DNA from: an uncultured Bacteroidota bacterium
GTDB lineage: Bacteria; Bacteroidota; Bacteroidia; Chitinophagales; Chitinophagaceae
Direction: 5' to 3'
DNA: 16,087 bases
Assembly: GCA_946479535.1 (NCBI GenBank)
Contig: CAMLGP010000010.1
Coordinates: forward strand, 1-16,087
Shown: in pieces, positions 3,310 to 16,087 of the stretch
Layout of the letters: the number at the start of each line of letters is the position of its first letter
Numbering within the stretch: the first letter of the stretch is position 1
Notes under the pieces: model-generated
Databases searched by the model: none
Told to the model about the DNA's origin: nothing
The model's input: the letters and a program-made list of their open reading frames with translations, nothing else
Position numbers and translations under genes: made by a program

Positions 3310-3543
3310 AAGCAGAACTTGGTGAATGGTTAGATAAAAGGGAGGTTATTCAGAGGAGATCAGGTTTGGAAATTAATGTATTTTTCCAGTTTAACAATTT
3401 TTGAACAGTATTTTCTTCTTTCAAAACAGGTTGATGCGACTAATGGTTTTTTACTATTTTTTGCATGTATTTTCCGCGTTAACACTACTAATTAACGATT
3501 TACATATACTAGGTCTCTTTCGGGTCCGTTTTAAAATGAAGCT
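3310..3543. other. Intergenic region between divergent genes
   Basis: This stretch separates the large minus-strand surface protein from the plus-strand secreted protein, so promoters for both should lie here. It is AT-rich. I found no clean TAnnTTTG box in either orientation. The closest is TATTTTTTGC near 3454-3463 on the plus strand, which has one T too many. A short inverted repeat, CGTTAA and TTAACG nine bases apart, lies at 3477-3497. Nothing else recognisable was seen. Confidence 0.4.
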
Positions 3544-3607
3544 ATTAGCCTTTAGCTATTAGCCATTAGATTAATTCTTGGTTAACAGCTAATAGCTAAA
3601 GGCTAAT
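3544..3607. repeat. 20-bp perfect inverted repeat (GCTAATAGC-type) covering the ATG of the next gene
   Basis: The left arm ATTAGCCTTTAGCTATTAGC (3544-3563) is exactly reverse-complementary to 3588-3607, with a 24-nt AT-rich loop. The second base of the ATG at 3606-3608 is the last base of the right arm. Related GCTAAT/GGCTAAC sequence occurs at 8547-8576 and 13238-13254, so this belongs to a dispersed class. It has no U-rich tail after the right arm, so it is not an obvious intrinsic terminator. Confidence 0.85.
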
Positions 3608-4673
3608 GGCAAACATCAAAACCAGTCACTTGAAAAGACTATTTCTGATCCGTACCTGCACACTGTTTCTGGCCATTATGGCATTCATGGCTGTAAAAGC
3701 CCAAATGATCACAGGTATATGGCAGGGAAAGATCAACAGGCAGAAGGTGGAAGTGAAGATCATCCAGCAGGGCGATAGCCTTACGGGAACCTCGTATTAT
3801 TACGAGTCTCCAACGCATTATCGCCGCTATGGCATCAAGGGTTATTTTGATCCCAATACCAATGAAGCAGTATGGTGGGATGATCATTTGATTGAAGAGA
3901 GAACAGGAAGCTCACGCAATGCTGCAGGTAAAATGGCTATGTTATCCCGTGCAGATTTTAATTGTCCGGGTGAAGGTAAAATGATGCTGGATGGGAAAGC
4001 TGGCAAACCTGAAGATGAAAATCCGAAAGGAGATGTTCACCTGGATAAAACAGCATCAACCAATTTTCCGGATGATTGGGATGATGTGATAGATAGTTAT
4101 CTCATTGGCGGTAACGATCCTGATCTTATAGCCAAACTTTCTGCAAGAGATCAGGAAGAACCAATAACCCAAATTCCTTCTCCCATTCTTCAGCGTACGC
4201 GCCAGGAACCAATAATAGAACCAATAAGAGAGCCTGTTACTATTGCACCGCCTATAGCTGATGCAAAGATTGACAAACCAATAACACCTGCCCCAACAAT
4301 TGAACAAAAATATATTACACGTAAAAAGGTATTGGTTAAAGAAATTCCACTGGCTGGTGATTCTGTTGAGTTACAGTTTTATGATAATGCCGAAATAGAT
4401 GGCGATTCGATTTCATTATTCCTGAATGACCGTCTCATCTTTCAACATATCCGTTTATTAGGATCAGCTTACACTATTAAGATAGCCGTAAAACAGCTGG
4501 AGGAAACCAATGAATTGACGATGGTGGCGGAGAACCTGGGTTCTATTCCTCCCAATACGTCCTATATGATTGCACTGGTAGGAGATAAGCGATATGATGC
4601 AAGGCTGGAAAGTACGGAAGGAAGTAGTGCGATGATACGGTTTGTGAAAGCGGGTGAAGCTACTGACCGCTAG
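3606..4673 (+). CDS. Uncharacterised secreted protein, two domains joined by a Pro/Ile/Glu linker
   Basis: I do not recognise a named family. From ATG 3606 the protein is 355 aa. The hydrophobic segment at residues 12-30 followed by KAQ gives a signal peptide with likely cleavage before Gln33. The mature N-terminal part (about 34-130) has alternating strands (TGIWQGKI, VEVKIIQQGDSLTG, YGIKGYFDP) resembling a small beta-barrel or lipocalin-like fold. A disordered linker rich in Pro, Ile and Glu spans about 183-235. The C-terminal domain (about 240-350) contains YDNAEIDGDSISLFLNDR, an Asp-rich loop that could bind calcium, and looks like a beta sandwich. The start is uncertain: ATG 3606 lies in an inverted repeat. 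A TTG at 3630 would give MKRLFLIRTCTLFLAIM, a textbook signal peptide of 347 aa in total. The gene converges on the EEP gene across the 45-bp repeat array. Confidence 0.8.
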   Translation: MANIKTSHLKRLFLIRTCTLFLAIMAFMAVKAQMITGIWQGKINRQKVEVKIIQQGDSLTGTSYYYESPTHYRRYGIKGYFDPNTNEAVWWDDHLIEERTGSSRNAAGKMAMLSRADFNCPGEGKMMLDGKAGKPEDENPKGDVHLDKTASTNFPDDWDDVIDSYLIGGNDPDLIAKLSARDQEEPITQIPSPILQRTRQEPIIEPIREPVTIAPPIADAKIDKPITPAPTIEQKYITRKKVLVKEIPLAGDSVELQFYDNAEIDGDSISLFLNDRLIFQHIRLLGSAYTIKIAVKQLEETNELTMVAENLGSIPPNTSYMIALVGDKRYDARLESTEGSSAMIRFVKAGEATDR

Positions 4674-4680
4674 CCTCCCG

Positions 4681-4860
4681 CCATGGTTCGTGTCTCACAA
4701 ACCATATCGAAACTCATCCGATCCGCCATGGTTCGTGTCTCACAAACCATATCGAGATACATCCGATCCGCCATGGTTCGTGTCTCACAAACCATATCGA
4801 GATACATTCGATCAGCCATGGTTCGTGTCTCACGAACCATATCGAAATGCATTGCGTGGA
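4681..4860. repeat. Four tandem 45-bp units, each with a GGTTCGTG/CACGAACC palindrome (array I)
   Basis: Units start at 4681, 4726, 4771 and 4816, each exactly 45 bp. Each opens with CCATGGTTCGTG, loop TCT, then a complementary arm, followed by a 20-bp linker. Palindromes are at 4683-4705, 4728-4750, 4773-4795 and 4818-4840. Only the last has a perfect 10-bp stem (ATGGTTCGTG with CACGAACCAT). The first three carry CACAAACCAT, one base different. In plus-strand RNA that gives a C-A mismatch, and in minus-strand RNA a U-G wobble, so the fold survives better in transcripts coming from the EEP side. The array starts 7 bp after the plus-strand stop and ends 3 bp before the minus-strand stop, filling the convergent gap. 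Confidence 0.95.
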
Positions 4861-4863
4861 TTG

Positions 4864-5706
4864 TTATGGGATCAATACATTTGCGATAACACTAAAATGA
4901 TCTGACGCATATCTTCCTTCCCATGTTTCAGAAATGGTGGCATGCTTAAGCACTTTCCATTTTCCTTTGATGAAGATGTGATCAATGGGGTCATTATAGA
5001 GCTCTTTGGCTGTAAAACCATTGAAAGTTCCTTCGGGTCCGTAATGAGGTGTGGCTGATATGCCCTTTGTATCTGTTAAACGTAACGGGTTATTGGCATC
5101 AACAATTACCCGGATAGGCTCATCAGAAGGTTTTGCATTGAAATCACCGGTAATAATAGCCGGTGTGGTGCCTGCAATATCTTTTACCTTTTGTAATAAC
5201 AGTTTAGCACTTTCTCTTCTTGCAACCTGCCCCATATGATCAAAATGCGTATTGAAAGCGAAGAAGATCTTCTTTGATTTTTTGTCGCGGAATTTAGCCC
5301 AGGTTACGATCCTTGTCAATGCTGCATCCCAACTTTTACTTGCTACTACTGTTGGTGTTTCTGAAAGCCAGAAAGTTTCTCCCTGTAATAATTGCAAGCG
5401 CGTTGAATCATAAAAGATTGCGGAATGTTCTCCTTTTGTTTCTCCATCACGCCCAACGCCAAAGTGTTTAAACCTGGGCAAACGCTGCTGAAGGTCTTCC
5501 ATCTGGCCGATCAATGCTTCCTGCACTCCCAGTAACTCTACACCATGAAATAATACCTGGGAAGCCAGTTTATCCTTACGATAGGGCCATGCGTTCAGGC
5601 TATCACCCGGATTATTATATCGAATATTAAATGTCATTACGTGTAATTCCTGGGCTTGCATAGCAATAGGGATCATAGCCAGCAAAGGCATTAGTAATAT
5701 TTTCAT
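4864..5706 (-). CDS. Secreted endonuclease/exonuclease/phosphatase family protein
   Basis: This is a 280-aa member of the EEP superfamily (metal-dependent phosphoesterases related to DNase I and AP endonuclease). Its substrate cannot be told from sequence. Visible active-site motifs are MTFNIRYNN (Asn27), GVQE (Glu63), NTHFDH (His154), GDFN (Asp188, Asn190), DPIDHIF (Asp242, His243) and SDHF (Asp269, His270). All expected catalytic residues are present, so it should be active. Residues 1-19 (MKILLMPLLAMIPIAMQAQ) form a signal peptide, placing it in the periplasm or outside the cell. I chose ATG 5706. A start at 5736 would put ten polar residues before the signal peptide and overlap the leuS stop. 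It lies 16 bp downstream of leuS on the same strand and is probably co-transcribed. Its stop abuts the 45-bp repeat array. Confidence 0.92.
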   Translation of the reverse strand: MKILLMPLLAMIPIAMQAQELHVMTFNIRYNNPGDSLNAWPYRKDKLASQVLFHGVELLGVQEALIGQMEDLQQRLPRFKHFGVGRDGETKGEHSAIFYDSTRLQLLQGETFWLSETPTVVASKSWDAALTRIVTWAKFRDKKSKKIFFAFNTHFDHMGQVARRESAKLLLQKVKDIAGTTPAIITGDFNAKPSDEPIRVIVDANNPLRLTDTKGISATPHYGPEGTFNGFTAKELYNDPIDHIFIKGKWKVLKHATISETWEGRYASDHFSVIANVLIP

Positions 5707-5722
5707 GCAGTGATAATTTTTG

Positions 5723-8533
5723 TTAAACAACCACATTCACCATTTTCCCTTTAACATAGATGATCTTTTTGGGAGCCTTTCCTTCCAGCCATTTCTTTAT
5801 TACTTCATTTTCCAATACGATCTTTTCTACGTCCAGTTGGGCCGCATCCAGTGAAATATTCAGGGTAGTGCGGGTTTTGCCATTTACGGAAATGGGATAT
5901 TCTTTACTGGATTCAGTAACATATTTCTCTTCAAATAAAGGATAGTGCGCATCCAGCACTGTTGTTTTGTTACCTAATTGATGCCAGAGTTCTTCGGCAA
6001 TATGAGGTGCATAGGGAGCCAGCAGGATCAATAAAGGCTCCAGTATCTGTTTTTTATTGCATTTGAGATCAGTAAGCTCATTTACCGCGATCATAAAGCC
6101 ACTGACACCGGTATTGAAGCTGAATCGTTCTGTATCATCTTCAATTTTCTTAATGGCGCGATGTAATACTTTCAGTTCAGCATCAGTAGCCTTTTCATCA
6201 GTCCAAACCTTTCCTTTTACCTCATCAAAGAAAAGTCGCCATAATTTTTTGAGAAATCGGTGCACCCCTTCAATTCCTTTGGTGTCCCAGGGTTTTGACA
6301 TTTCTACCGGGCCCAGGAACATTTCATACATACGGAAGGTATCAGCGCCGTATTTATAAACAAGATCATCGGGATTGTCGACATTATATTTAGACTTCGA
6401 CATTTTCTCCGATTCCTCTTTTACATAAATGAATTCTTCTTCGCCTTCCTTTTCCCAACGAATCTCATAACTTGGGGCTTCTATTAAATTCTCACTAATA
6501 GCCCTTTCAAATATTTTTCTAAATAAGCGTCCATCGTTATCAACAATCCTATGTCCGTATCTTAACCTGGGAGAATTGCCGGAGGCTGTTGTTTTATTAT
6601 ATGAAGTAATATATTGTTTAGGATCAGTAGGATTATCCTCAAGAACTAAATTAAAAAAATATGACCTCCCTGTAATCATTCCCTGGTTCACCAGTTTCTT
6701 ATAAGGCTCATCATACCCGATATAGTCCAGATCATATAGCACTTTCGTCCACATGCGGCTATACAGCAAATGCCCAACAGCATGTTCTGTTCCGCCGATG
6801 TATAGGTCTACCTGGTTCCAGTAATCAGAGATCTTCCGGTCGCAGAATGCTTTATCATTATGCGGATCCATATAGCGGAGGAAGTACCAGCTGCTGCCTG
6901 CATAACCGGGCATGGTGTTAGTTTCCAGATGCTGGTCAGTCCAGGCTTTTATATTGGCGAGCGGTCCTTCTCCTTCTGGTCCGGGTTTATACGAATCTAC
7001 ATACGGCAATTCCAGTGGCAATTCTTTTTCATCCAGCGGATATGCCACTCCATTGATCCATTTAATGGGGAATGGTTCACCCCAGTAACGCTGGCGACTG
7101 AAGGCCGCGTCCCTCATTTTGAAATTCACTTTGCGAATGCCGATACCCATCTCCTCTATTTTCCGGATCACGATCTCAATGGCCTCCTTCATTACAATGC
7201 CATTGAGAAAACCGGAATTCTCCAGGATGGCTTCCTTTGTGGGGTTGGCATCCTCACCATCATAATATTTACCAATGATATTGGTGATAGGGATATTAAA
7301 CTGCTTCGCGAATTTATGGTCACGCTCATCACCGCAGGGTACAGCCATGATTGCACCGGTACCGTATCCTGCCAGTACATATTCAGAAATCCAGATGGGA
7401 ATCTTCTGCTGGTTGAAAGGATTTAAAGCATAAGCTCCGGTAAATACCCCACTGATCTTTTTTTCAGCCATACGTTCCCGCTCACTCCTGCTCTTTACAT
7501 AAGTAATATAATCATCTACTGCCTGCTGTTGTTCAGGTGTTGTAATAGAGGCCACAAGATCATGCTCGGGCGCGATCACCATAAAGTCAACGCCAAATAT
7601 GGTATCCGGACGGGTAGTATACACCCTGAGTTTATCAGCAGTTCCGGCAATGGCAAAATCAATTTCAGCTCCGGATGATTTACCAATCCAGTTGGTCTGC
7701 ATTTCCTTCATGGCATCGCTGAAATCCACTTTCTCCAGTCCTTCCAGCAAACGATCTGCATATTCCGTTATGCGGAGATACCATTGGCGCAGTTTCTTTT
7801 TTACTACTGGATAGCCGCCTCGTTCACTCACTCCATTGATCACTTCATCATTGGCCAGTACGGTGCCCAGTGCTTCACACCAGTTCACTTCACCATAGCC
7901 GCAATAAGCGAGACGATATTGCATGAGAATATCCATTCTTTTTGCTTCATCAAAGTTCTCCCATTCATCAGCTGTGAATTTAAGAGAGGGATCACCCGGA
8001 CAGGGATGTGATTTATTACCTTCTTTTTCAAAAGCATTTATCAGCACCGGTATCCGTTCTGCCTTTTTATTTTTTCGATTAAAGAAGCTGTCGAACAACT
8101 GCAGGAAGATCCATTGGGTCCATTTGTAATAAGAAGGATCGGAAGTGCGGAACTCCCGGCTCCAATCGAACGAAAAACCCACATTATCCATCTGCTTCCG
8201 GAAATTGTTGATATTCTGCTCCGTGCTTACAGCGGGGTGAATGCCGTGTTCAATGGCATATTGTTCAGCAGGCAAACCAAAGGCATCATAGCCCATGGTA
8301 TGGAGCACATTGAAACCTTTGAGTCTTTTATAACGGGCATAAATATCGCTGGCGATGTATCCAAGTGGATGGCCTACATGCAAACCTACTCCACTGGGAT
8401 AGGGAAACATGTCCAACACATAACATTTGGGTTTGAGGCTTGCCCCTTCGCCAGGATTGGGGACCTGGTACACTTTATTCTCTTTCCACTGTTCTTTCCA
8501 GCGTTGCTCTATATCTCTGAACTTATATTCCAT
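5723..8533 (-). CDS. leuS: Leucine--tRNA ligase
   Basis: This class I synthetase charges tRNA-Leu with leucine in the cytoplasm. Its 936 aa are normal for Bacteroidota. The HIGH motif is HVGH (residues 52-55) after YPSGVGL, and KMSKS is at 710-714. The CP1 editing domain shows the threonine-rich TTRPDT (306-311) and GTGAIMAVPCGDERD (391-405). The editing aspartate is present, but the position that is His in the common GHD/AHD motif is Gly here (CGD). An insertion with a Cys-containing stretch at 160-240 precedes the editing domain. The anticodon-binding and C-terminal domains follow KMSKS. The segment at about 623-706, just before KMSKS, is AT-rich, uses TTA/AGA/AGG codons unlike its surroundings, and does not resemble the leucine-specific region I would expect. 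ATG 8533 fits the family N-terminus (EYKFRDIEQRWKEQW). Confidence 0.98.
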   Translation of the reverse strand: MEYKFRDIEQRWKEQWKENKVYQVPNPGEGASLKPKCYVLDMFPYPSGVGLHVGHPLGYIASDIYARYKRLKGFNVLHTMGYDAFGLPAEQYAIEHGIHPAVSTEQNINNFRKQMDNVGFSFDWSREFRTSDPSYYKWTQWIFLQLFDSFFNRKNKKAERIPVLINAFEKEGNKSHPCPGDPSLKFTADEWENFDEAKRMDILMQYRLAYCGYGEVNWCEALGTVLANDEVINGVSERGGYPVVKKKLRQWYLRITEYADRLLEGLEKVDFSDAMKEMQTNWIGKSSGAEIDFAIAGTADKLRVYTTRPDTIFGVDFMVIAPEHDLVASITTPEQQQAVDDYITYVKSRSERERMAEKKISGVFTGAYALNPFNQQKIPIWISEYVLAGYGTGAIMAVPCGDERDHKFAKQFNIPITNIIGKYYDGEDANPTKEAILENSGFLNGIVMKEAIEIVIRKIEEMGIGIRKVNFKMRDAAFSRQRYWGEPFPIKWINGVAYPLDEKELPLELPYVDSYKPGPEGEGPLANIKAWTDQHLETNTMPGYAGSSWYFLRYMDPHNDKAFCDRKISDYWNQVDLYIGGTEHAVGHLLYSRMWTKVLYDLDYIGYDEPYKKLVNQGMITGRSYFFNLVLEDNPTDPKQYITSYNKTTASGNSPRLRYGHRIVDNDGRLFRKIFERAISENLIEAPSYEIRWEKEGEEEFIYVKEESEKMSKSKYNVDNPDDLVYKYGADTFRMYEMFLGPVEMSKPWDTKGIEGVHRFLKKLWRLFFDEVKGKVWTDEKATDAELKVLHRAIKKIEDDTERFSFNTGVSGFMIAVNELTDLKCNKKQILEPLLILLAPYAPHIAEELWHQLGNKTTVLDAHYPLFEEKYVTESSKEYPISVNGKTRTTLNISLDAAQLDVEKIVLENEVIKKWLEGKAPKKIIYVKGKMVNVVV

Positions 8534-8546
8534 GGTATTTTTCCAG

Positions 8547-8576
8547 GGCTATTGGCAATTAGCCGTTAGCCATTAG
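8547..8576. repeat. GGCTAAC/GCTAAT-class repeat in the leuS leader
   Basis: This sequence contains ATTAGCCGTTAGCC (8558-8571). The reverse complement of that 14-mer is found exactly at 13238-13251, and the class resembles the inverted repeat at 3544-3607. GGCTA (8547-8551) and TAGCC (8560-8564) can pair. It lies 14 bp upstream of the leuS start codon, so it would be in the 5' untranslated region of the mRNA. Confidence 0.6.
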
Positions 8577-8666
8577 TATTTATCCTTTAATAATCAATAA
8601 CACCTGATAATAAAATATTGGGTTCCTGATAGCGTTAGATGTATAATCTGCCCATCGGCATGGCAG

Positions 8667-8684
8667 TCCTGCCTGACGGCAGGA
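8667..8684. repeat. Perfect hairpin palindrome, 7-bp stem and TGAC loop
   Basis: TCCTGCC, loop TGAC, GGCAGGA: a perfect GC-rich hairpin in an otherwise AT-rich divergent intergenic region. It lies between the two proposed -7 boxes and the leuS start. No U-tract follows in either direction, so it is not a standard terminator. It may be a dispersed intergenic palindrome; only one copy is in this window. Confidence 0.75.
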
Positions 8685-8687
8685 TGG

Positions 8688-8695
8688 CAAAATTA
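8688..8695 (-). promoter_or_regulatory. Possible -7 box for leuS
   Basis: The minus strand reads TAATTTTG followed by C, an exact match to the Bacteroidota -7 consensus TAnnTTTG. No convincing -33 TTG was found at normal spacing. It would give leuS a leader of about 150 nt that includes the 8667-8684 hairpin and the 8547-8576 repeat. Confidence 0.4.
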
Positions 8696-8717
8696 CGGAT
8701 TGCAGAGCTAAATTGGC

Positions 8718-8725
8718 TATTTTTG
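8718..8725 (+). promoter_or_regulatory. Possible -7 box for ftsX
   Basis: TATTTTTG followed by C matches TAnnTTTG exactly. It lies about 30 bp before the ATG at 8755, leaving a short leader. The nearest TTG upstream (8700-8702) is only 15 bp away, shorter than usual. This box makes the in-frame TTG at 8713 an impossible start, because it would lie upstream of the transcript. Confidence 0.45.
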
Positions 8726-8754
8726 CCATACCCTACCATTTCAAAATCAATAGC

Positions 8755-9627
8755 ATGGCTGAATCCAGAAAGGCTTCTATCAAGCGTGGAAAACCGTCTT
8801 ATTTCATGACTATCCTGGGCGTTACGCTCATCCTTTTCCTGTTGGGCATGATTGGCTGGCTGGTGATCAACGCCAATAAGCTGGGCGATTATTTCAAGGA
8901 GAGCGTGGAAGTAAGAATTTACCTGCGGGGTGATCTTGCACCCTCAGACAGTACGGCACTCATGCAGTATATTTCTGCCAAACCCTATATCAGATCAATT
9001 GATTATATCACCAAGGAAGAGGGAAAGAAGATCTATTTGTCAGATGGCAATGAGGACTGGGATAAAGTGCTTACTGCAAATCCGCTCCCCAATGCCATTT
9101 ATTTTAAGGTGACGGATAAGTACCTTAATACAGATTCACTTACCCTGATCAAGAAGGATCTGGAACAGCAGACATATATTAATGATGTGCAATACCCCGA
9201 AGCATTGGTAGGAAAGATGAATGAGAACCTGAAAAAGATCAGTATTTATATGCTGGTGATTGTGATCCTGCTTTCCATAGTGGTGATCTTTTTGATCGAT
9301 AATACCATCCGCCTTGCCATGTTCAGCAACCGCTTCCTCATCAAGACCATGCAGATGGTAGGCGCTACACGAAAGTTCATTGCCCGGCCAATGAACAACA
9401 GGGCAATTATTTATGGAGCACTGAGTGGAGTAATAGCTTCAGTAGCAGTTTACCTGGTCATTATATTACTGGAAAACCTCCTTACCGGGCTTAGAGGCAT
9501 GAGGGATAATTTCATGCTCTCCGTATTGTTCATGTCCCTGATCCTGATAGGAGTGTTTATCACCCTGTTCAGCACTCACCGGAGCGTGATTAAATACCTG
9601 AAAATGAAGCTGGATGATTTATATTAA
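8755..9627 (+). CDS. ftsX: Cell division protein FtsX (ABC transporter permease-like)
   Basis: FtsX is the membrane partner of the ATPase FtsE at the division site. The complex activates peptidoglycan hydrolases rather than moving a substrate. The 290-aa product has the FtsX plan: a cytoplasmic N-terminus rich in Lys/Arg, TM1 at about 17-38, a large extracytoplasmic loop (about 40-160, beginning SVEVRIYLRGD), then TM2 (162-184), TM3 (217-239) and TM4 (253-273). LIKTMQMVGATRKFI (195-209) is the conserved cytoplasmic coupling segment of this family. I chose ATG 8755 over the upstream TTG 8713, because the extra 14 residues are not family-like and overlap a promoter box. No ftsE is adjacent, which is common in this phylum. 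The DUF3098 gene and uppP follow on the same strand. Confidence 0.93.
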   Translation: MAESRKASIKRGKPSYFMTILGVTLILFLLGMIGWLVINANKLGDYFKESVEVRIYLRGDLAPSDSTALMQYISAKPYIRSIDYITKEEGKKIYLSDGNEDWDKVLTANPLPNAIYFKVTDKYLNTDSLTLIKKDLEQQTYINDVQYPEALVGKMNENLKKISIYMLVIVILLSIVVIFLIDNTIRLAMFSNRFLIKTMQMVGATRKFIARPMNNRAIIYGALSGVIASVAVYLVIILLENLLTGLRGMRDNFMLSVLFMSLILIGVFITLFSTHRSVIKYLKMKLDDLY

Positions 9628-9634
9628 GGATTTA

Positions 9635-9727
9635 GAAATGGGAAATTTCGAAATTTTAGACAATCATGCCCTGAAAAAGAGCTAATTAAGCGTTTCCTGC
9701 CCCTGAATTTCACAATTTCCCCATTTC
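9635..9727. repeat. Imperfect AT-rich inverted repeat after ftsX
   Basis: The arm at 9635-9657 (GAAATGGGAAATTTCG then AAATTTT) is roughly reverse-complementary to 9705-9727 (GAATTTCACAATTTCCCCA then TTTC), with about 18 of 23 positions matching and a 47-nt loop. The whole 147-bp gap between ftsX and the next gene is of this AAATTTC-rich kind. It could fold in the transcript, but low sequence complexity makes chance pairing easier. Confidence 0.4.
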
Positions 9728-9774
9728 AAAATTTCAAAATTATTCTCCTATCTTGCTGACCCAAATCTCCAATA

Positions 9775-10065
9775 ATGGCAGAAAAAAAGACGAGTTCACC
9801 CATTGAAAGAAAACCGAATACGCCTGTGGCTGCATCTAATAATTCCATCTTTACAAAGGATAATTACCGCTGGATGCTGATCGGTATAATTGTGATTGCA
9901 TTAGGGATGTTCCTGATGAGCGGTGGTGCAAGCAAAGACCCCAGTGTATTTAATAAAGATGAGGTGTATAGCTTTCGCCGTATTACGCTGGCCCCGATAC
10001 TGATCATGGCGGGATTGGTACTTGAGATCTACGCAATATTCAAACGGCCCAAACCTACCGTATAA
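9775..10065 (+). CDS. DUF3098 family small membrane protein
   Basis: This 96-aa protein has a polar, probably cytoplasmic N-terminus (1-30), then NYRWMLIGIIVIALGMFLMSGG (TM1, 33-50). A short loop with DPSVFNKDEVYSFRRI precedes TM2 (71-88), and the tail is KRPKPTV. This arrangement is the DUF3098 family, known from Bacteroidota and commonly placed between ftsX and uppP, as here. Its function is not known. The conserved position suggests a link to division or cell-wall lipid cycling (inference). It ends 12 bp before uppP, so the two are very likely one transcript. TATCTTGC just upstream (9751-9758) resembles a damaged -7 box. Confidence 0.88.
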   Translation: MAEKKTSSPIERKPNTPVAASNNSIFTKDNYRWMLIGIIVIALGMFLMSGGASKDPSVFNKDEVYSFRRITLAPILIMAGLVLEIYAIFKRPKPTV

Positions 10066-10077
10066 TCTGCCCATTGA

Positions 10078-10902
10078 ATGAATTTATTTGAAGCAGTTAT
10101 TCTCGCCATTGTAGAAGGGGTAACCGAATTTCTACCTATTTCTTCAACGGGTCATATGGTCATTACCAGTTCATTGCTGGGAATACATAAAGAAGAGTTC
10201 ACCAAATTATTTGAAGTTGCCATTCAGTTTGGCGCCATCCTGGCCGTGGTATTTTTATATGCACGTAAATTCTTTCAGTTCAGTCGCTGGCAATTCTATT
10301 TACGACTGCTGGTTGGCGTGATCCCTGCCCTGGTGCTGGGTTATCTGTTTTCCGATAAGATTGATGAAATGCTGGAGAGCCCGATGATAGTTGGCATTAC
10401 CATGCTGGCAGGAGGTTTCATATTATTATTTATCGATAACGTATTTAAGAACCCAACCATAACAAAGGATGATCAGATCACTTATGGCAAATCATTCATT
10501 GTTGGTATCTGGCAATGCCTGGCCATGATACCAGGTGTAAGCAGAAGTGCTGCTTCCATTATCGGTGGCATGCAACAGAAGTTCACGCGGCAGCTGGCTG
10601 CTGAATTTTCTTTTTTCCTGGCTGTTCCAACCATGTTTGCAGCTACTGCTCATTCCATTTTCCTGAAAGAATGGGAAATAGGAGGCGTGAAAGAGAAAGG
10701 TTACGAGATCATCATGGCGAACAGGGATAATACTATTTCATTTATTGTAGGCAACCTGGTGGCATTTTTTGTGGCCATACTGGCCATCCGGTTCTTTATT
10801 AATTTCCTGAAGCAGTACGGCTTTAAAGTATTTGGCTGGTACCGGATAATTGTGGGCGCTTTATTGCTGATCCTCTTACTTACAGGAACCCTGAAAAGCT
10901 GA
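10078..10902 (+). CDS. uppP: Undecaprenyl-diphosphatase UppP/BacA
   Basis: This integral membrane phosphatase converts undecaprenyl diphosphate to undecaprenyl phosphate, recycling the lipid carrier for peptidoglycan and surface glycans. Loss or overproduction alters bacitracin sensitivity in known members. The 274-aa product has both signature motifs: EGVTEFLPISSTGH (residues 13-26) with catalytic Glu17 and His26, and PGVSRSAAS (152-160) with catalytic Arg156. The second motif reads SRSAAS where SRSGAT/S is usual. Several hydrophobic segments follow the standard BacA topology. ATG 10078 begins MNLFEAVILAIVEG, as expected. It is 12 bp after the DUF3098 gene, completing the ftsX-DUF3098-uppP cluster. 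Confidence 0.97.
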   Translation: MNLFEAVILAIVEGVTEFLPISSTGHMVITSSLLGIHKEEFTKLFEVAIQFGAILAVVFLYARKFFQFSRWQFYLRLLVGVIPALVLGYLFSDKIDEMLESPMIVGITMLAGGFILLFIDNVFKNPTITKDDQITYGKSFIVGIWQCLAMIPGVSRSAASIIGGMQQKFTRQLAAEFSFFLAVPTMFAATAHSIFLKEWEIGGVKEKGYEIIMANRDNTISFIVGNLVAFFVAILAIRFFINFLKQYGFKVFGWYRIIVGALLLILLLTGTLKS

Positions 10903-10979
10903 TCAAAAAACGATTACTAACCGTTACGCTATCTTCGTCATAGTAGAGCTTACTCCCGAACGAACCAACTTTTTCAGTT

Positions 10980-12323
10980 ATGCAAACAGCTTCCAAGAAG
11001 ATTGTAAATGCCTGGGCCATGTATGACTGGGCCAACTCAGCTTACAATCTTGTTATTACTTCCACCATATTTCCAGCTTACTATGTGGGCATTACTTCAG
11101 CTTCCAATCACAATGATCAATCCTATGTATATTTCTTTGGACGACGTTTTGTGAATACTGCACTGGAGAACTATACATTGGCTGCTGTGTTTTTGCTGGT
11201 GGCGTTGACCTCACCCATACTTAGTTCAATAGCGGACTATCGCCGGAATAAAAAGATCTGGTTGCGATGGTTTTGTTATATCGGTTCGGCAGCCTGTGTT
11301 GCGCTTTTCTTTTTTGCAAAAGATAAAAGCGGGCATCTCAATATTGAATACGGAATGTTTGCTTTTGGCATAGCCGCCATGGGTTACTGGAGCAGCCTGG
11401 TATTTTATAATTCATATCTGCCTGATATTGCTGCCCCTGCGGATCAGGACAGGATCAGTGCAAAAGGATATTCTCTCGGCTATATTGGTAGCGTACTTCT
11501 CCAGATCATAGCATTTGTTGTGATCCTGAAACCTGAATGGTTTGGCCTTAATAAAGAGGATGGAACAATAGGTGCCCGTATTTCATTTTTGCTGACAGGG
11601 CTCTGGTGGTTTGGCTTTGCACAGATCACTTTGCGTGCATTGCCGGTTAGCAGCAGAGCTGAGCGCAAAGCAAAGAGAAATGTGCTGGCTAATGGATTTA
11701 TTGAATTGAAGAAAGTATGGTATCAGTTGCGGCACATGCCGGCCCTCTCCCGCTTTCTACTCAGTTTCTTTTTATACAGCAGTGGAGTACAAACGGTAAT
11801 GCTGGTGGCGGCTGGTTTTGGTAAGAAAGAAATTTTTCCGGATGAGAAAGATGAACCCAAATTGCTCATGACCATTATCATTATTCAGTTAGTGGCGATT
11901 ATTGGTGCCGTAGGGATGAGCAGATTAAGCCGGAAGATCGGTAACTGGTGGGTGATTGCTATTGCTGTATTGATCTGGATCGTGGTATGTATTGCTGGTT
12001 ATAAAGTGCAATCACAAACAGGATTTTATTTACTGGCCGCACTTGTTGGACTGGTAATGGGTGGCATTCAAAGCATGAGCAGAAGTACGTATAGCAAGTT
12101 ATTACCCGAAACGCAGGATACTACTTCTTTTTTCAGCTTTTATGATGTGACTGAAAAGATCGCTATTGTATTAGGCATATTCACTTTTGGGTATTTAGAA
12201 GAACTCACCGGAAGCATGCGTAACAGTATCATTGCACTTGGTGTATTTTTTGTAGCAGCTTTCCTGGCGTTATTATTTGCCAAGGCTCCGTATGACAGGC
12301 GCATGAAAGAGGTAAATGGATAA
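10980..12323 (+). CDS. MFS transporter, UMF1 (Atg22-like) family
   Basis: A 447-aa membrane protein with about 12 hydrophobic segments. The N-terminal signature NAWAMYDWANSAYNLVITSTIFPAYY (residues 10-35) is typical of the UMF1 family of the major facilitator superfamily, related to yeast vacuolar effluxer Atg22. Other family-like parts are DYRRNKKIW after TM2 and GLVMGGIQSMSRSTYSKLLPE (about 355-375) in the C-terminal half. The substrate is unknown; yeast Atg22 exports amino acids from the vacuole, but that cannot be carried over here. The 77-bp gap after uppP contains TATCTTCG (10930-10937), one base from TAnnTTTG, so this gene may have its own promoter. The MBL-fold gene follows after 14 bp and is probably co-transcribed. 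Confidence 0.9.
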   Translation: MQTASKKIVNAWAMYDWANSAYNLVITSTIFPAYYVGITSASNHNDQSYVYFFGRRFVNTALENYTLAAVFLLVALTSPILSSIADYRRNKKIWLRWFCYIGSAACVALFFFAKDKSGHLNIEYGMFAFGIAAMGYWSSLVFYNSYLPDIAAPADQDRISAKGYSLGYIGSVLLQIIAFVVILKPEWFGLNKEDGTIGARISFLLTGLWWFGFAQITLRALPVSSRAERKAKRNVLANGFIELKKVWYQLRHMPALSRFLLSFFLYSSGVQTVMLVAAGFGKKEIFPDEKDEPKLLMTIIIIQLVAIIGAVGMSRLSRKIGNWWVIAIAVLIWIVVCIAGYKVQSQTGFYLLAALVGLVMGGIQSMSRSTYSKLLPETQDTTSFFSFYDVTEKIAIVLGIFTFGYLEELTGSMRNSIIALGVFFVAAFLALLFAKAPYDRRMKEVNG

Positions 12324-12337
12324 TTCAATTTTACGAA

Positions 12338-13201
12338 ATGACAAAACTTTATACTATCAATACCGGGTACTTTAAGCTGGATGGCGGCGCCATGTTTGGC
12401 GTAGTACCCAAATCAATCTGGAACAAGATCAACCCGGCTGATGAAAATAATTTATGCTCCTGGGCGCTCCGTTGTTTGCTGATACAGGAAGGCAATCGCC
12501 TGATCCTGGTAGACAATGGCAATGGCGATAAGCAGGATGCGAAATTCTTCAGTCATTACCACTTGCACGGTGACGATACATTGGATAAATCACTGGCGAA
12601 ATATGGATTTTCCAGGAATGATATTACCGATGTATTTCTGAGTCATCTGCATTTTGATCATTGTGGTGGAAGTATTGTGCGTGAAGGCGATAAACTGGTT
12701 CCTGGTTTTAAAAACGCTACTTTCTGGAGCAACAAAGAACACTGGGAATGGGCGGTGAACCCGAATGAACGGGAAAAGGCTTCTTTTCTGAAAGAAAATA
12801 TTTTACCGATAGAAGAAAGTGGCAAACTGAAATTCATCCCGATAGCTATCGGGACAGATGGTAAACTTGGAAAAACTTCCTTCACTGAAAATATAGACGT
12901 ACGTTTTGTCAATGGCCACACACAGGCTATGATGTTACCTCAGATAAAGTACAAGGGAAAGACGATTGTATTTATGGCAGATCTGCTGCCTTCCCAAGGC
13001 CATATTCCCCTACCTTATATCATGGGATATGATATGTTCCCGTTAACTACATTACAGGAAAAGAAAGCTTTTTTGAAGGAAGCTGTTGAAGGGGAGTATA
13101 TCCTTTTCTTTGAGCACGATCCTCAATATGAATGCTGTACATTAAAGTACACTGAGAGAGGGATCAGACCGGATAAGTTCTTTAAACTGGAAGAGATATA
13201 A
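12338..13201 (+). CDS. MBL-fold metallo-hydrolase
   Basis: This 287-aa soluble protein of the metallo-beta-lactamase superfamily has no visible signal peptide and is probably cytoplasmic. The metal-binding set is complete: HLHFDH (103-108), His194 in VNGHT, Asp215 in FMADLLP, and His260 in FFEHD. The layout, including TINTGYFKLDGGAMFGVVP at the N-terminus, resembles the lactonase-like branch (acyl-homoserine lactonase relatives), but the substrate cannot be assigned. Residues 167-173 (IPIAIGT) are encoded across an 18-bp perfect palindrome that may be an inserted or copied repeat. It lies 14 bp after the UMF1 transporter gene, possibly one operon. Its stop is followed after 4 bp by a GGTTCGTG-type hairpin. 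Confidence 0.9.
   Translation: MTKLYTINTGYFKLDGGAMFGVVPKSIWNKINPADENNLCSWALRCLLIQEGNRLILVDNGNGDKQDAKFFSHYHLHGDDTLDKSLAKYGFSRNDITDVFLSHLHFDHCGGSIVREGDKLVPGFKNATFWSNKEHWEWAVNPNEREKASFLKENILPIEESGKLKFIPIAIGTDGKLGKTSFTENIDVRFVNGHTQAMMLPQIKYKGKTIVFMADLLPSQGHIPLPYIMGYDMFPLTTLQEKKAFLKEAVEGEYILFFEHDPQYECCTLKYTERGIRPDKFFKLEEI
12837..12854. repeat. 18-bp perfect palindrome inside the MBL-fold gene
   Basis: TCCCGATAGCTATCGGGA equals its own reverse complement, with no loop. It lies in frame within the coding sequence and encodes part of IPIAIGT (residues 167-173). I recall this type of CCCGATAGCTATCGGG palindrome as a dispersed element in Bacteroidota genomes, but I could not check this. Confidence 0.9.
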
Positions 13202-13205
13202 GCAT

Positions 13206-13254
13206 GCCCTGGTTCGTGTCTCACGAAACATGGCGAGGGCTAACGGCTAATAGC
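13206..13254. repeat. Composite hairpin: GGTTCGTG-type palindrome plus GGCTAAC-class repeat
   Basis: TTCGTG (13213-13218), loop TCT, CACGAA (13222-13227) form the core of the same palindrome as in arrays I and III, here as a single copy with a mismatch beyond the core. GCCCT (13206-13210) and AGGGC (13236-13240) are complementary and could extend the stem past an internal loop. GGCTAACGGCTAAT (13238-13251) then overlaps the outer arm and matches the repeat upstream of leuS. The element fills most of the 57-bp gap between the convergent MBL-fold and DUF3108 genes. It could act as a two-way 3'-end structure. It has no long T-tract on the plus side. Confidence 0.8.
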
Positions 13255-13258
13255 TTTC

Positions 13259-14068
13259 TTACTTCTTTCTGATCAGTGAACTCAATGGGTAACGGATATT
13301 ATTATAGCTCATCATATCTATCTTCACTTTACCTACCACGATGGGGCTTTCAATGCGAACGGGGATATGATTCTCATCATCAGTGACCCATACGGTCATT
13401 TTTTCACCACCATCAAAGATGGTTCCTTTGATCAGAAGCGGTTTGAACTTGATGGCGTTGAACTTTCCATACTTGGTTTTAATGGTTTCCTTTCCGAGGT
13501 AACGGATATACATTTCGTTTACCTCATTGTCAAGGAACAGGCTGAAAGCGATCTTGTCATTGGGGCGTAATTTGGAGAAATCGATATTGCGGGCATAGAA
13601 AACAGAACTTACCACATCCTGCACACAGGCTGGCACCTTAAATATTCCTTCATTGGTAAGTGCAGTATTGGCCGTTTTATTGAAAGTAACATTCTGGTAA
13701 ATCTTGTGGCCGCCTTCATTCACATTCCGCACAAACTTGTAGGTCTGAAGGGTGGCAGTGTCAATATAAGTTTCATATTTGTCGCGCACCTTATAAAGAA
13801 AATCGTAAGATGAATTGGTGGCGCCATCACCTACAATATGATAAACAGGTTTGCCATTTAAATTTTCCAGGGTATTGGTAAAGGTGGCGGTGCCTGCGTT
13901 GACATAGATGCCAGCTACAGCATAATAAACCGTGAAAACTACCTTTTCACCGGCACTGAATGCGGTATTTTTAATACCGCACATTTCCTGGTAAGGGGTT
14001 TCGGAAGGTGTGGTGAAAGCCATTAATGCAATGAGCGATACAGCCAACAGTTTCAAAGTTCCTTTCAT
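13259..14068 (-). CDS. DUF3108 domain-containing exported protein
   Basis: A 269-aa protein with a signal peptide (MKGTLKLLAVSLIALMAFTTPSE, cleavage near 20-23). The mature part follows the DUF3108 pattern: FSAGEKVVFTVYYAVAGIYVNAGTATF near the N-terminus, DFLYKVRDKYETYIDTATLQTYKFVRNVNEGG in the middle, then NDKIAFSLFLDNEVNEM, GKFNAIKFKPLLIKGTIFDGGEKMTVWVTDDENHIPVRIESPIVVGKVKIDM at the end. The fold is probably an all-beta periplasmic barrel. The function is unknown; family members are envelope proteins. It is 67 bp downstream of the flippase-like gene on the same strand and may share its transcript. I saw no good -7 box in that gap. Confidence 0.87.
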   Translation of the reverse strand: MKGTLKLLAVSLIALMAFTTPSETPYQEMCGIKNTAFSAGEKVVFTVYYAVAGIYVNAGTATFTNTLENLNGKPVYHIVGDGATNSSYDFLYKVRDKYETYIDTATLQTYKFVRNVNEGGHKIYQNVTFNKTANTALTNEGIFKVPACVQDVVSSVFYARNIDFSKLRPNDKIAFSLFLDNEVNEMYIRYLGKETIKTKYGKFNAIKFKPLLIKGTIFDGGEKMTVWVTDDENHIPVRIESPIVVGKVKIDMMSYNNIRYPLSSLIRKK

Positions 14069-14135
14069 CAGAATTGTATTGTTTTATGGGTCACCCAGAT
14101 TCCTCAGGTAAAAAGCTTATTGCATAATAATCTTC

Positions 14136-15152
14136 TTATCCCTGTTGTTCATTTTTATTAAGTAATATTTTTTTAATGCTCAAAATTAACAAGCTGCCAG
14201 CTAATGCCGGAATTATTAAATTGATCACCCAGATATTCACCGAAGTAAACCATATACCGAGGTGATTTTCACTGAACATTCCCACCAGGTTTAAACTGAC
14301 CTCCCACCGGAGGCTCAGGTCTGTAAACAAAGCGATGGTTGGAATTACCGCCATAACCAGGAAGGAAACGCTCACAGTCCATAACGTTTGTTCCCCCGAA
14401 ACATGCACACCAAAAAAGCGGAACAGCAAATAATACTGCGCTATAAAAACCAGAAAGCGCAATGCTGATAAAGACAGCAGTTGCAGCAGCAAAGTTGCAT
14501 TAAATTCCTCCAGGGCACGGAAAAGCCAATCATACTTTCTTATCCATTTAATACGCTCAAACCACCTGGCCACCCCCGCCAGACGGAAATAAAAAAATGT
14601 TAAAAATAGTAACGCAATAATGGTTCCATACAGTATGCTCTTGTACCAGAAATGGGATACCAGGTGGTTGGCTTCCAATTGAGGAGCCAGAATTATCCAG
14701 CCTGCCACCCCCATGATAAGGGTAATGATCAACTGGCTCATACTTCCGGTTATGGTCAGGGAAATGGCCTTTAAACGGTTCCCCTCATCCATGTATAACA
14801 CCCGACCCAGGTATTCCCCTACCCGGTTGGGAGTGCTAACAGCAAATGAAACTCCTGATAAAACGGCTTTAAAGGCTGTCAAAAACCTGACCTGCTGAAC
14901 ACGCTTTATACAGACTTTCCATTTAAATGCTTCCAGGGCCCAGTTCAATATCATCAGAAATATTACCGCTACCAGGTAGATGATCCGGGAACTGGTAAAA
15001 GATGCCTGGATCTCCTGCCATGATCTTTCCAGACGATCCTGTTTGATCAACTGATGATAGATGGAATAAGAAACCCAGATGAATAATAGCGGACCCAGGA
15101 AGTAATGGATAAAGAATCTAAAATATTTTGCAGTGGTTTTCCTTTTTTCCAT
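14136..15152 (-). CDS. Flippase-like integral membrane protein (LPG synthase TM domain family)
   Basis: A 338-aa polytopic membrane protein. Hydrophobic segments lie at about 16-36, 57-75, 133-155, 172-190, 229-248, 258-276 and 303-327, with AVSTPNRVGEYLGR (104-117), the conserved TPxRxGE motif of the lysylphosphatidylglycerol synthase transmembrane family (PF03706 type). The soluble aminoacyl-transferase domain of MprF is absent, so this is the stand-alone flippase-like form. These are thought to move or modify lipid-linked substrates; the actual substrate is unknown. ATG 15152 gives a Lys/Arg-rich cytoplasmic start (MEKRKTTAKY). It is divergent from ruvC, sharing the 15153-15351 region, and lies upstream of the DUF3108 gene. 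Confidence 0.88.
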   Translation of the reverse strand: MEKRKTTAKYFRFFIHYFLGPLLFIWVSYSIYHQLIKQDRLERSWQEIQASFTSSRIIYLVAVIFLMILNWALEAFKWKVCIKRVQQVRFLTAFKAVLSGVSFAVSTPNRVGEYLGRVLYMDEGNRLKAISLTITGSMSQLIITLIMGVAGWIILAPQLEANHLVSHFWYKSILYGTIIALLFLTFFYFRLAGVARWFERIKWIRKYDWLFRALEEFNATLLLQLLSLSALRFLVFIAQYYLLFRFFGVHVSGEQTLWTVSVSFLVMAVIPTIALFTDLSLRWEVSLNLVGMFSENHLGIWFTSVNIWVINLIIPALAGSLLILSIKKILLNKNEQQG

Positions 15153-15186
15153 AATTGCTTACTGTGAAATATTCTGATTAGGTTAT

Positions 15187-15266
15187 GGCCACAGAGAAAC
15201 AGAAAGGTGCCAAAGCCCGCAGAGAGCACTCTGTGACTCTCCTGGTGTCTGTGGTTCCCTGTGGTC
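15187..15266. repeat. Nested imperfect inverted repeat of CACAGAG type upstream of ruvC
   Basis: An outer arm with GGCCACAGAGAAACAG (15187-15202) is partly complementary to CTGTGGTTCCCTGTGG (15249-15264) and its flank; about 13 of 17 positions match. An inner perfect stem CAGAG (15220-15224), loop AGCA, CTCTG (15229-15233) lies between. The sequence is simple and CACAGAG-rich, like a degenerate dispersed element. It lies in the divergent region between the flippase-like gene and ruvC. Confidence 0.55.
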
Positions 15267-15351
15267 TAAAACGGAGACAATCATCTCACTTGTTATCTGT
15301 AATTTGCGATGGATATGCCGGCTAATCGGTTTTATTAATCGTGTAAAAATA

Positions 15352-15930
15352 GTGCCCCTCTTGCACAAACCTGCCAAAATAATTCTGGGAATTGATCCGG
15401 GTACACTTCAAATGGGTTATGGTATAATTGAAATAACCAGTGGCAAGATGTTATTACGCGAAATGCAGACCCTTCGGATCTCAGCCAAAAAAGATAATCA
15501 CGAACGTCTTCACGTAATACACCAAAAAGTGGTGCAGCTGATCATACAATATAAACCTCATGAGTTTGCCATTGAAGCGCCTTTCTTTGGAAAGAACGTT
15601 CAAAGCATGCTGAAGCTGGGAAGAGCCCAGGGTGTTGCCATTGCAGCTGCCATGCATGCCGGTATCCCAGTTACAGAATATTCACCCCGGAAAGTAAAAC
15701 AATCAATAACGGGTAATGGAAATGCGGATAAAGTACAGGTCTGGAAAATGCTCCGGTCCATCCTTAGCCTGCAGGAAGAGCCCGATTATTATGATGCTAC
15801 TGATGCACTGGCCATTGCTGTGTGCCATCATTTCCAGATGAATCCTCTAATGGAGAAGCAGGGAAAGAAGTATAAGGGGTGGGAAGATTTCCTTAAAGAC
15901 AGAAAGGTAACTGCTACAAGGCGTAAGTAG
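15352..15930 (+). CDS. ruvC: Crossover junction endodeoxyribonuclease RuvC
   Basis: RuvC resolves Holliday junctions by paired metal-dependent cuts, working with RuvAB in recombination and repair. From the chosen start it is 192 aa. The catalytic set is complete: Asp15 in ILGIDPGT (12-18), Glu75 in FAIEAPFFGKN (72-82), and Asp148 and Asp151 in YYDATDALAIAVCHH (146-160). SPRKVKQSITGNGNADK (111-127) is the conserved loop. The Lys/Arg-rich tail after about 175 is typical of Bacteroidota members. No in-frame ATG lies before the IDPGT motif. I chose GTG 15352, giving MPLLHKPAKIILGIDPGT. TTG 15361 is also possible. The TTG at 15304 adds a non-family extension and falls in a TAATTTGC promoter-like box (15300-15307). 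A nine-codon out-of-frame reading frame (15309-15338) precedes it. The stop TAG touches the first unit of array III. Confidence 0.94.
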   Translation: MPLLHKPAKIILGIDPGTLQMGYGIIEITSGKMLLREMQTLRISAKKDNHERLHVIHQKVVQLIIQYKPHEFAIEAPFFGKNVQSMLKLGRAQGVAIAAAMHAGIPVTEYSPRKVKQSITGNGNADKVQVWKMLRSILSLQEEPDYYDATDALAIAVCHHFQMNPLMEKQGKKYKGWEDFLKDRKVTATRRK

Positions 15931-16087
15931 TGGTTCGTGAGACACGAACCATGGCCTTGCGTGAATCACGACGTTGTTCGTGAGACACGAAACATTGCCC
16001 TGCGTGAACCACGCCGTTGTTCATGAGACACGAACCATGCCTTGCGTGAACCAAGACGTTGTTCATGACACACGAACCATGGCCCTG
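15931..16087. repeat. Tandem 42-43-bp units with the GGTTCGTG palindrome (array III, cut by window edge)
   Basis: Units begin at 15931, 15974, 16017 and 16059 (periods 43, 43, 42), and the fourth runs off the window. Unit 1 has a perfect 9-bp stem, TGGTTCGTG, loop AGA, CACGAACCA (15931-15951). Unit 2 ends CACGAAAC (one outer mismatch). Units 3 and 4 start GTTCATG (one inner mismatch), and unit 4 has loop ACA. The linker holds a second small palindrome, CGTG-AAT-CACG in unit 1 (15960-15970). The core is the same as in array I read on the opposite strand, but the linker differs. It follows the ruvC stop codon with no gap. Confidence 0.93.

What the first reader, a model, noticed from the sequence alone, without database searches (positions are those of the whole stretch)
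4681..16087. Dispersed palindromic repeat family (GGTTCGTG, TCT/AGA loop, CACGAACC) at three loci, always right after a stop codon
Nine copies occur in 16 kb: four tandem at 4681-4860, one at 13206-13240, and four (the last cut) at 15931-16087. The core is identical across loci, while linker and period differ (45 versus 43/42 bp), so these are separate amplifications of one mobile or amplifying core rather than one duplicated block. Every locus lies 0-7 bp from at least one stop codon. This looks like a REP-like palindromic element family, possibly moved by a REP-associated (Y1, TnpA-REP-like) transposase elsewhere in the genome, or a recurring 3'-end RNA structure. Sequence facts are direct; mechanism is inference.
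Basis: partly seen in the sequence, partly recalled or inferred. Interest (0 to 1): 0.75.

Follow-up and report, generated by a model that had tools for sequence, protein, structure and literature searches.

The report
Bacteroidota REP hairpins with cognate transposase
The repeats are small DNA hairpins of a mobile family found in several lineages of Bacteroidota; in relatives they flank the gene of a matching single-strand DNA transposase, so this is a known kind of element with an unusual tag, worth describing but not a new kind of system.

Summary
The nine hairpins are real (no shuffle of 200 has more than one). They are REP elements of Bacteroidota: a one-sided GCC tag, a 2-bp variable foot, an 8-bp stem (usually GGTTCGTG), a 3- or 4-nt loop. 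Stem positions change in compensating pairs (0 of 500 shuffles reach the covariation score). In relatives they flank, inverted, a ~185-aa REP-associated tyrosine transposase (RAYT) with motifs like TnpA-REP subclass 2.6. Of 30 loci fetched by that protein alone, 27 carry such a hairpin, against 1 of 30 PF01797 loci and 0 of 22 control loci. Of 294 family genomes, all 20 with a close RAYT hold the hairpin. Stem variants largely follow RAYT clades. The window's sites are empty in relatives. Copies lie between genes, near 3' ends.

Limits: the window's genome is not held, so its own RAYT is unseen; 62 of 85 hairpin-bearing genomes lack a close RAYT; mobility and mechanism are inferred. A 2018 paper notes GT[AG]G-less hairpins at subclass 2.6 genes; its table was not readable here.

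The parts
4680..4705 (+). REP copy 1 of array 1: GCC tag, foot AT/AT, stem with one C-A mismatch, loop TCT
   Evidence: ssDNA -4.2 kcal/mol
4725..4750 (+). REP copy 2 of array 1 (same stem mismatch)
4770..4795 (+). REP copy 3 of array 1 (same stem mismatch)
4815..4840 (+). REP copy 4 of array 1, perfect hairpin
   Evidence: ssDNA -9.8 kcal/mol, z -6.9
4678..4852 (+). Array 1: head-to-tail, period 45, between convergent genes (3606-4673 + and 4864-5736 -)
   Evidence: absent in Segetibacter G006 together with the nuclease gene and absent in G486, where both gene homologues stand side by side
13206..13231 (+). Single REP copy, one stem mismatch, between convergent genes (12338-13201 + and 13259-14068 -)
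13197..13258 (.). 62-bp stretch (REP copy plus a second repeat, GCTATTAGCCGTTAGC on the - strand) absent from the aligned Segetibacter site
   Evidence: alignment
15930..15955 (-). REP copy 1 of array 3, perfect 8-bp stem; its outer edge meets the ruvC stop codon
   Evidence: ssDNA -9.3 kcal/mol
15973..15998 (-). REP copy 2 of array 3, two mismatches
16018..16036 (-). REP copy 3 of array 3 (core only; the sequence lacks one G of the tag region, which gives the 42-bp spacing)
16058..16083 (-). REP copy 4 of array 3; hairpin complete, repeat unit cut by the window end
15933..16087 (-). Array 3: head-to-tail, spacing 43/43/42, just after ruvC (15304-15930 +)
   Evidence: absent after ruvC in Segetibacter

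Best explanation
The repeats are REP elements: short one-sided (GCC-tagged) DNA hairpins, non-autonomous partners of a clade of REP-associated tyrosine transposases (RAYT / TnpA-REP, subclass 2.6 by motif) of Bacteroidota. Shown here: the anatomy, compensatory stem changes, the inverted flanking of RAYT genes in relatives, joint occurrence across genomes, stem variants that largely follow RAYT clades, intergenic and 3'-end placement, empty orthologous sites. Inferred from TnpA-REP and IS200/IS605 biochemistry: when DNA is single-stranded (replication), the RAYT binds the folded hairpin, uses the unpaired GCC 5' of the foot as guide in place of GTAG, cuts at a nearby pyrimidine-rich site (CC/CT is enriched 4-5 nt before GCC), and joins the element elsewhere. 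Placement at gene 3' ends then reflects where insertions are tolerated, and the head-to-tail arrays grew later by slippage or unequal exchange.
For: Anatomy with sharp borders: tag G82 C82 C79 %, flanks near random (167 distinct copies with a TCT/AGA loop and up to 2 core mismatches). Covariation: 67 distinct elements, 91.9% paired vs 83.6% shuffled, score 0.238 vs 0.088, 0 of 500; the five pairs that vary on both sides beat all of 1000 shuffles each. Half-site test, not conditioned on the 3' arm beyond its first CAC: of 19 elements with another 5' arm, 9 carry the matching 3' arm, shuffle maximum 5. RAYT between inverted copies: L151 (7 and 18 bp), L049, L057, L004 and others; by protein alone 27 of 30, vs 1 of 30 and 0 of 22. 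In 294 genomes: RAYT at E<=1e-55 in 20, all with the hairpin, p 2.8e-12. Tree: 30-row clade (95/96) with mainly GGTTCGTG stems, sister 7-row clade with GGTNGGTG stems, distant RAYTs with unrelated hairpins. Fold best match 4ER8, TnpA-REP with REP hairpin, E 1.7e-6. Up to 136 copies a genome. Close pairs: 36 tag-outward, 11 tag-inward, 33 same way. Placement. Empty sites. Flank dinucleotide.
Against: No RAYT seen in the window or, as its genome is not held, in its genome. The nearest relative found, Segetibacter G006 with 46 copies, has only a RAYT of another clade, with no such hairpin in its locus. 62 of 85 hairpin-bearing genomes have no RAYT at E<=1e-50; 7 of the 18 richest had none at 1e-15 (six of these seven hold other RAYTs, G633 none). 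In an even phylum sample exact 3-nt-loop copies occur in fewer genomes than the reversed control (3 of 395 vs 10 of 395), so the family is patchy. In the half-site test 8 of the 19 odd 5' arms keep the standard 3' arm, and one covariation measure, pairs changed on both sides, is only 5 vs 3.3 (33 of 500 shuffles reach it). The window arrays are direct, not alternating as in BIMEs. No transposition was observed.
Confidence: 0.87

Rival explanations
1. A 3'-end RNA structure (terminator, processing or stabilising hairpin) kept by selection on transcripts; the RAYT link is incidental.
For: 3'-end and convergent-gene bias: nearest end 3' for 87 of 117, convergent 33% vs 17% expected by bases, divergent 8% vs 24%. 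Perfect copies fold well. A terminator-like site starts 4 bp after the single copy (13235-13258), in the second repeat.
Against: No terminator-like site is listed at the nine REP hairpins themselves (one at 16002-16014 lies in a spacer); no Rfam match. Either strand occurs after stops. RAYT flanking and patchy distribution are not expected.
Confidence: 0.05
2. REP elements that today have a host role (e.g. gyrase or nucleoid protein sites, transcript stability) and are kept after the RAYT is lost; mobility is past.
For: Many hairpin-rich genomes lack the close RAYT (62 of 85); copies near gene ends. Such roles are reported for REPs in general (passages of PMC6006769).
Against: Window copies are mostly imperfect (7 of 9) and the sites are empty in relatives, so no sign of retention of given sites.
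Confidence: 0.25
3. A protein-binding palindrome (operator) of a regulator in double-stranded DNA.
For: Inverted repeat with a core that changes little (copies there were selected by that core).
Against: The site is asymmetric (GCC on one side, TCY loop), and arms change together on both sides with many pair types; copies are rarely between divergent genes.
Confidence: 0.03
4. Mobilised in trans by another RAYT clade (L232/L233/L241) in genomes lacking the close one, perhaps the window's lineage included.
For: That clade occurs in hairpin-rich G006, G684 and G607; in G607 the hairpin stands 26 bp after such a gene.
Against: One-sided in G607, none near L232 and L233.
Confidence: 0.15

Closest known systems
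TnpA-REP subclass 2.6 / RAYT group 5 REPtrons of Bacteroidetes (PMC6006769, passages read)
   Same: Phylum, length, motifs NH[LIV]H - WQ - YIH[QN]NP (with variants), genes flanked by hairpins without GT[AG]G, copies elsewhere in the genome
   Different: The passages read give no sequence or consensus for these hairpins (they point to Table S1, not readable here); here: GCC tag, covarying foot and stem, 3/4-nt loop, sister stem classes, genome counts. The paper calls the structures weaker; perfect copies here have 8-10 bp stems
Canonical REP / BIME with GTAG-recognising RAYT (E. coli, Stenotrophomonas; PMC2817692, PMC8266576, passages)
   Same: One-sided tag 5' of a hairpin, inverted REPs around the rayt gene, inverted doublets, intergenic, RAYT-REP co-evolution, similar fold (4ER8)
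   Different: Tag GCC instead of GT[AG]G; direct arrays in the window; copy numbers mostly low (1-136)
CGTC-tagged palindromes (PMC3733652, passages)
   Same: Short tagged palindromes, reported also from Bacteroidetes
   Different: Other tag; no CGTC in the consensus
IS200/IS605 ends (IS608, ISDra2)
   Same: HUH Y1 transposase, hairpin with 5' guide; structures among the fold matches
   Different: No IS seen in the window; in relatives hairpins can far outnumber the gene and stand alone

Membership tests
REP element / REPtron (RAYT-associated) | Short palindrome, dispersed, extragenic, several to many copies | tested here: met
   (up to 135 copies of the 4-nt-loop form); 117 of 134 clusters intergenic
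REP element / REPtron (RAYT-associated) | rayt gene flanked by inverted copies of the palindrome | tested here: met
   in relatives; 27 of 30 RAYT-fetched loci hold the hairpin type somewhere in the locus
REP element / REPtron (RAYT-associated) | Canonical 5' GT[AG]G tag | tested here: not met
   tag is GCC; TTA or CTA in three loci of the sister clade
REP element / REPtron (RAYT-associated) | Cognate RAYT in the same genome as the repeats of the window | not testable with these tools
   no genome held for the window
TnpA-REP subclass 2.6 (RAYT group 5) | Motifs NH[LIV]H, WQ, YIH[QN]NP, about 179 aa, Bacteroidetes | tested here: met
   L012: NHIH, WQ, YIHNNP, 185 aa. Of 48 RAYT rows, distant ones included, NH[ILV]H in 33, TH[LV]H in 4, 11 not found by my pattern; YIH[NQ]NP in 25, close variants in most others. 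Assigned by motif; the paper's own profiles were not run
TnpA-REP subclass 2.6 (RAYT group 5) | Flanking hairpins without GT[AG]G, copies in the genome | tested here: met
TnpA-REP (biochemical) | Binds and cuts single-stranded REP hairpin | not testable with these tools
   needs protein; fold agrees with 4ER8
Intrinsic terminator | Hairpin followed by a T-run | tested here: not met
   no site at the nine hairpins
Known RNA family | Rfam match at gathering score | tested here: not met
   0 matches
BIME / REPIN | Inverted pairs of REPs | tested here: inconclusive
   relatives: 36 tag-outward pairs of 80 distinct close pairs, 33 same way; window arrays are direct

The most novel reading that the evidence does not exclude
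A REP system with a non-GTAG guide: a GCC-guided single-strand transposase family in which guide (GCC, or CTA/TTA in a sister branch), stem (GGTTCG vs GGTNGG) and loop length have switched step by step along the RAYT tree, so nature offers a graded series of retargeted TnpA-REP enzymes; and in genomes that lost the cognate enzyme the repeats are carried in trans by a second RAYT clade.
Probability: 0.3. Interest if true: 0.65.

Novelty: new variant of a known kind. Interest (0 to 1): 0.5.

Why it matters
It gives the hairpins of the Bacteroidota-dominated RAYT subclass, described in the passages I read only as 'atypical', an explicit anatomy, a cognate enzyme and a phylogeny of matched variants. 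The recognition study I could see (PMC8266576, passages) worked on GTAG systems of two other groups; the GCC family would let the guide model be tested outside them. It may also account for assembly breaks at such repeats (this window ends inside one) and shows that PF01797 can overlook the transposase.

Tried and rejected
PF01797 as a probe for the transposase: 11 of 14 genomes had hits (a fifteenth handle, L047, was not held), but none of the 30 loci carried the palindrome within 3 mismatches. This first looked like a refutation of the RAYT idea; the cognate clade scores below that model's cut-off and was found by reading the ORFs inside a hairpin cluster.

Phylum-wide abundance of exact 3-nt-loop copies: not above the control in an even phylum sample; rejected as a statement about the whole phylum.

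Counting only 3-nt loops undercounts; 4-nt loops were added. Other stems were not counted genome-wide.

Correlation as proof of one-to-one pairing: rejected, because 62 of 85 hairpin genomes lack the close RAYT.

Viral contigs: 0 matches. Text search for the two heptamers: 259 papers hold both, 20 were listed, and their titles look unrelated. None of the titles and abstract starts listed names a GCC-tagged REP; of papers I read passages of PMC6006769, PMC3733652, PMC2817692, PMC8266576 and PMC11194056 (a RAYT gene in Chryseobacteria; no occurrence of the word REP). Subscription papers and supplements were not seen. Bertels 2017 was not read; its group numbers come from PMC6006769.

Loci L001-L120 were fetched by the palindrome, so RAYT adjacency there is conditioned; one search uses protein-fetched loci instead, the best-scoring ones. 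There hairpins with up to one mismatch were sought anywhere in loci of 3.4 kb on average, and the 22 control loci overlap one another in part. Stem labels were set by hand.

The gene caller is crude (ORFs of 100 aa or more, longest first); 22 of 156 clusters at locus edges were dropped.

After the filing check I ran: it corrected my reading of the nuclease gene in G486 (it is in place there, without the array) and (14 of 20 copies tagged, not nearly all).
Full report
OBSERVATION. Two of nine are perfect; the others have one or two mismatches. They form two head-to-tail arrays and one single copy. Each locus starts 0-6 bp after a stop codon; loci 1 and 2 lie between convergent genes.

WHERE THE WINDOW COMES FROM. 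No genome is held. Among the 47 genomes searched, FtsX is closest (77%) to a Segetibacter MAG (G006, locus L001); its RuvC is 91% identical. So the window is most likely from Chitinophagaceae. That MAG has 46 copies with up to one mismatch.

A FAMILY OF BACTEROIDOTA. It is patchy: exact 3-nt-loop copies occur in 3 of 395 phylum-sampled genomes (one is G001 itself), fewer than the reversed control, 10. In the family of G001, 48 of 294 genomes carry the 3-nt-loop form with up to one mismatch (control 4) and 65 of 294 the 4-nt-loop form (control 4), 85 in all, with up to 136 copies.

ANATOMY. Turned so that the loop reads TCT, 167 distinct copies give 5'-GCC-NY-GGTTCGTG-TCT-CACGAACC-RN. GCC stands on one side only. 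The foot pairs covary: AT/AT, TT/AA, GT/AC, TC/GA, CC/GG. Inner stem positions do too: GGTGCGTG, GGCTCGTG, GGAGCGTG, GGTGGGTG and others, with their complements. To avoid choosing what I wanted to show, I took elements by tag, 5' arm, loop and the first CAC alone: 9 of 19 with a non-standard arm had the matching partner (shuffle mean 0.9, maximum 5; 8 of 19 kept the standard partner), and 10 of 17 for 4-nt loops (mean 2.5, maximum 6; 6 kept it). On 67 distinct sequences the covariation score is 0.238 against 0.088 in shuffles, and slid structures reach 0.075 at most; one of the five measures, pairs changed on both sides, is weak (33 of 500 shuffles reach it). Selection, or a copying process, keeps the hairpin and not just the sequence.

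THE TRANSPOSASE. The Y1_Tnp model gave many hits, none of the 30 fetched beside the palindrome. But inside a cluster of copies in a Chitinophagaceae MAG (L151) lies a 185-aa ORF with the HUH motif FVIMPNHIHLIW and the Y motif YIHNNP, 7 and 18 bp from inverted copies. Its relatives stand between such hairpins again and again. Loci fetched with the protein alone hold the hairpin type in 27 of 30 cases (21 with GCC), PF01797 loci in 1 of 30, loci around ftsX and ruvC in 0 of 22. Three of these proteins score 69.5-74.6 bits with NCBIfam's REP_Tyr_transpos (cut-off 80) and 14.4-17.3 with PF01797 (cut-off 23). The AlphaFold model (mean pLDDT 84.6) matches best 4ER8, the REP-associated tyrosine transposase with a REP hairpin (E 1.7e-6, TM 0.60/0.66).

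CO-EVOLUTION. In the tree of 48 RAYT rows, a 30-row clade (support 95/96) goes mainly with GGTTCGTG stems (exceptions: GGTGCGTG beside four, GGCCTGTG beside one, none found beside two), its 7-row sister (94/72, not a firm join) with GGTNGGTG stems beside six, three of them with a TTA or CTA tag, and distant RAYTs with unrelated hairpins or none. Long branches make the deepest joins unsure.

JOINT OCCURRENCE. Of 294 genomes, 20 have a RAYT at E<=1e-55 and all 20 have the hairpin (p 2.8e-12); at 1e-50, 23 of 27. Of the four without it, G449, G567 and G617 have variant stems beside their RAYT and G682 GGTTGGTG-type ones (L182). In the other direction it is weak: 62 of 85 hairpin genomes lack a close RAYT. 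The rich ones among them, G006, G607, G573, G504, G684, G415 and G683, hold other RAYTs; G633 holds none. In loci drawn from seven hairpin-rich genomes, five of them without a close RAYT, 14 of 20 distinct copies have the GCC tag. Loss of the enzyme, or service by another clade, are both open.

PLACEMENT AND AGE. 117 of 134 clusters are intergenic (13% expected); the nearest gene end is 3' in 87 of 117 (46.5% expected); convergent gaps are favoured and divergent ones avoided. The Segetibacter contig is syntenic at 81-89% nucleotide identity in five blocks; none of the three loci has an element there. At locus 2 the alignment shows 62 extra bp in the window; G470 has no REP there either, but a different short repeat. 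At locus 1 the nuclease gene is missing in Segetibacter along with the array; in G486 both flanking genes stand next to each other without an array. This fits gain in the window's line, though loss elsewhere is not excluded.

MECHANISM. Inferred: the RAYT acts on single strands, with GCC in the place of GTAG as guide. A pyrimidine pair 4-5 nt before GCC is enriched (of 151: CC 33 vs 7.1 expected, CT 19 vs 8.3); known TnpA-REPs cut at CT 5' or 3' of the REP (PMC8266576, passages). This is a candidate cleavage site, not a shown one. A simple pairing of the last two guide bases would predict GG, which is not what is enriched, so the guide rule may not carry over unchanged. Three copies of array 1 share their mismatch, so that array grew by local duplication.

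KNOWN OR NEW. PMC6006769 (passages) describes subclass 2.6 with these motifs and 'atypical secondary structures' lacking GT[AG]G. The kind is thus known. I saw no GCC tag, consensus or variant series in the passages and listings named above, but its supplementary table may list such hairpins.

Noticed in passing
3541-3610, 8548-8570, 13239-13254: A second dispersed repeat, GCTATTAGCCNTTAGC with a 7-bp rhythm, at three places between genes (7 matches up to 2 mismatches, 0.04 expected), once 7 bp from the REP copy inside the 62-bp extra stretch; no exact match in any of the 250 fetched loci. G470 has a similar-looking TTAGCAATAGACAA repeat at the same orthologous spot.
   Followed up: partly
L138, L139, L144, L148, L226, L229, L237: Other RAYT clades of Bacteroidota carry quite different flanking hairpins, e.g. 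CTGCGAGGCT(NNN)AGCCTCGCAG after GCT, or GTCCGGATT(NNN)AATCCGGAC.
   Followed up: partly
L239: A RAYT-like gene in G415 beside hairpins GGGCGAAT(NNN)ATTCGCCC preceded by GTAG, a canonical-looking REP in a Chitinophagaceae genome.
   Followed up: no
4864-5736: The endonuclease/exonuclease/phosphatase gene next to array 1 is missing between its neighbours in Segetibacter G006; in G486 its homologue is in place beside the homologue of 3606-4673 but about 3.9 kb from leuS, so this region is rearranged.
   Followed up: partly
16087: The window ends inside array 3, as expected if such repeats break assemblies; in two fetched contigs a copy lies within 30 bases of the end (L100, L107).
   Followed up: no
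L187 (G455): 13 hairpins of the GGTTGGTG/GGTTAGTG type within 3.5 kb around one RAYT gene, a possible active amplification spot.
   Followed up: no
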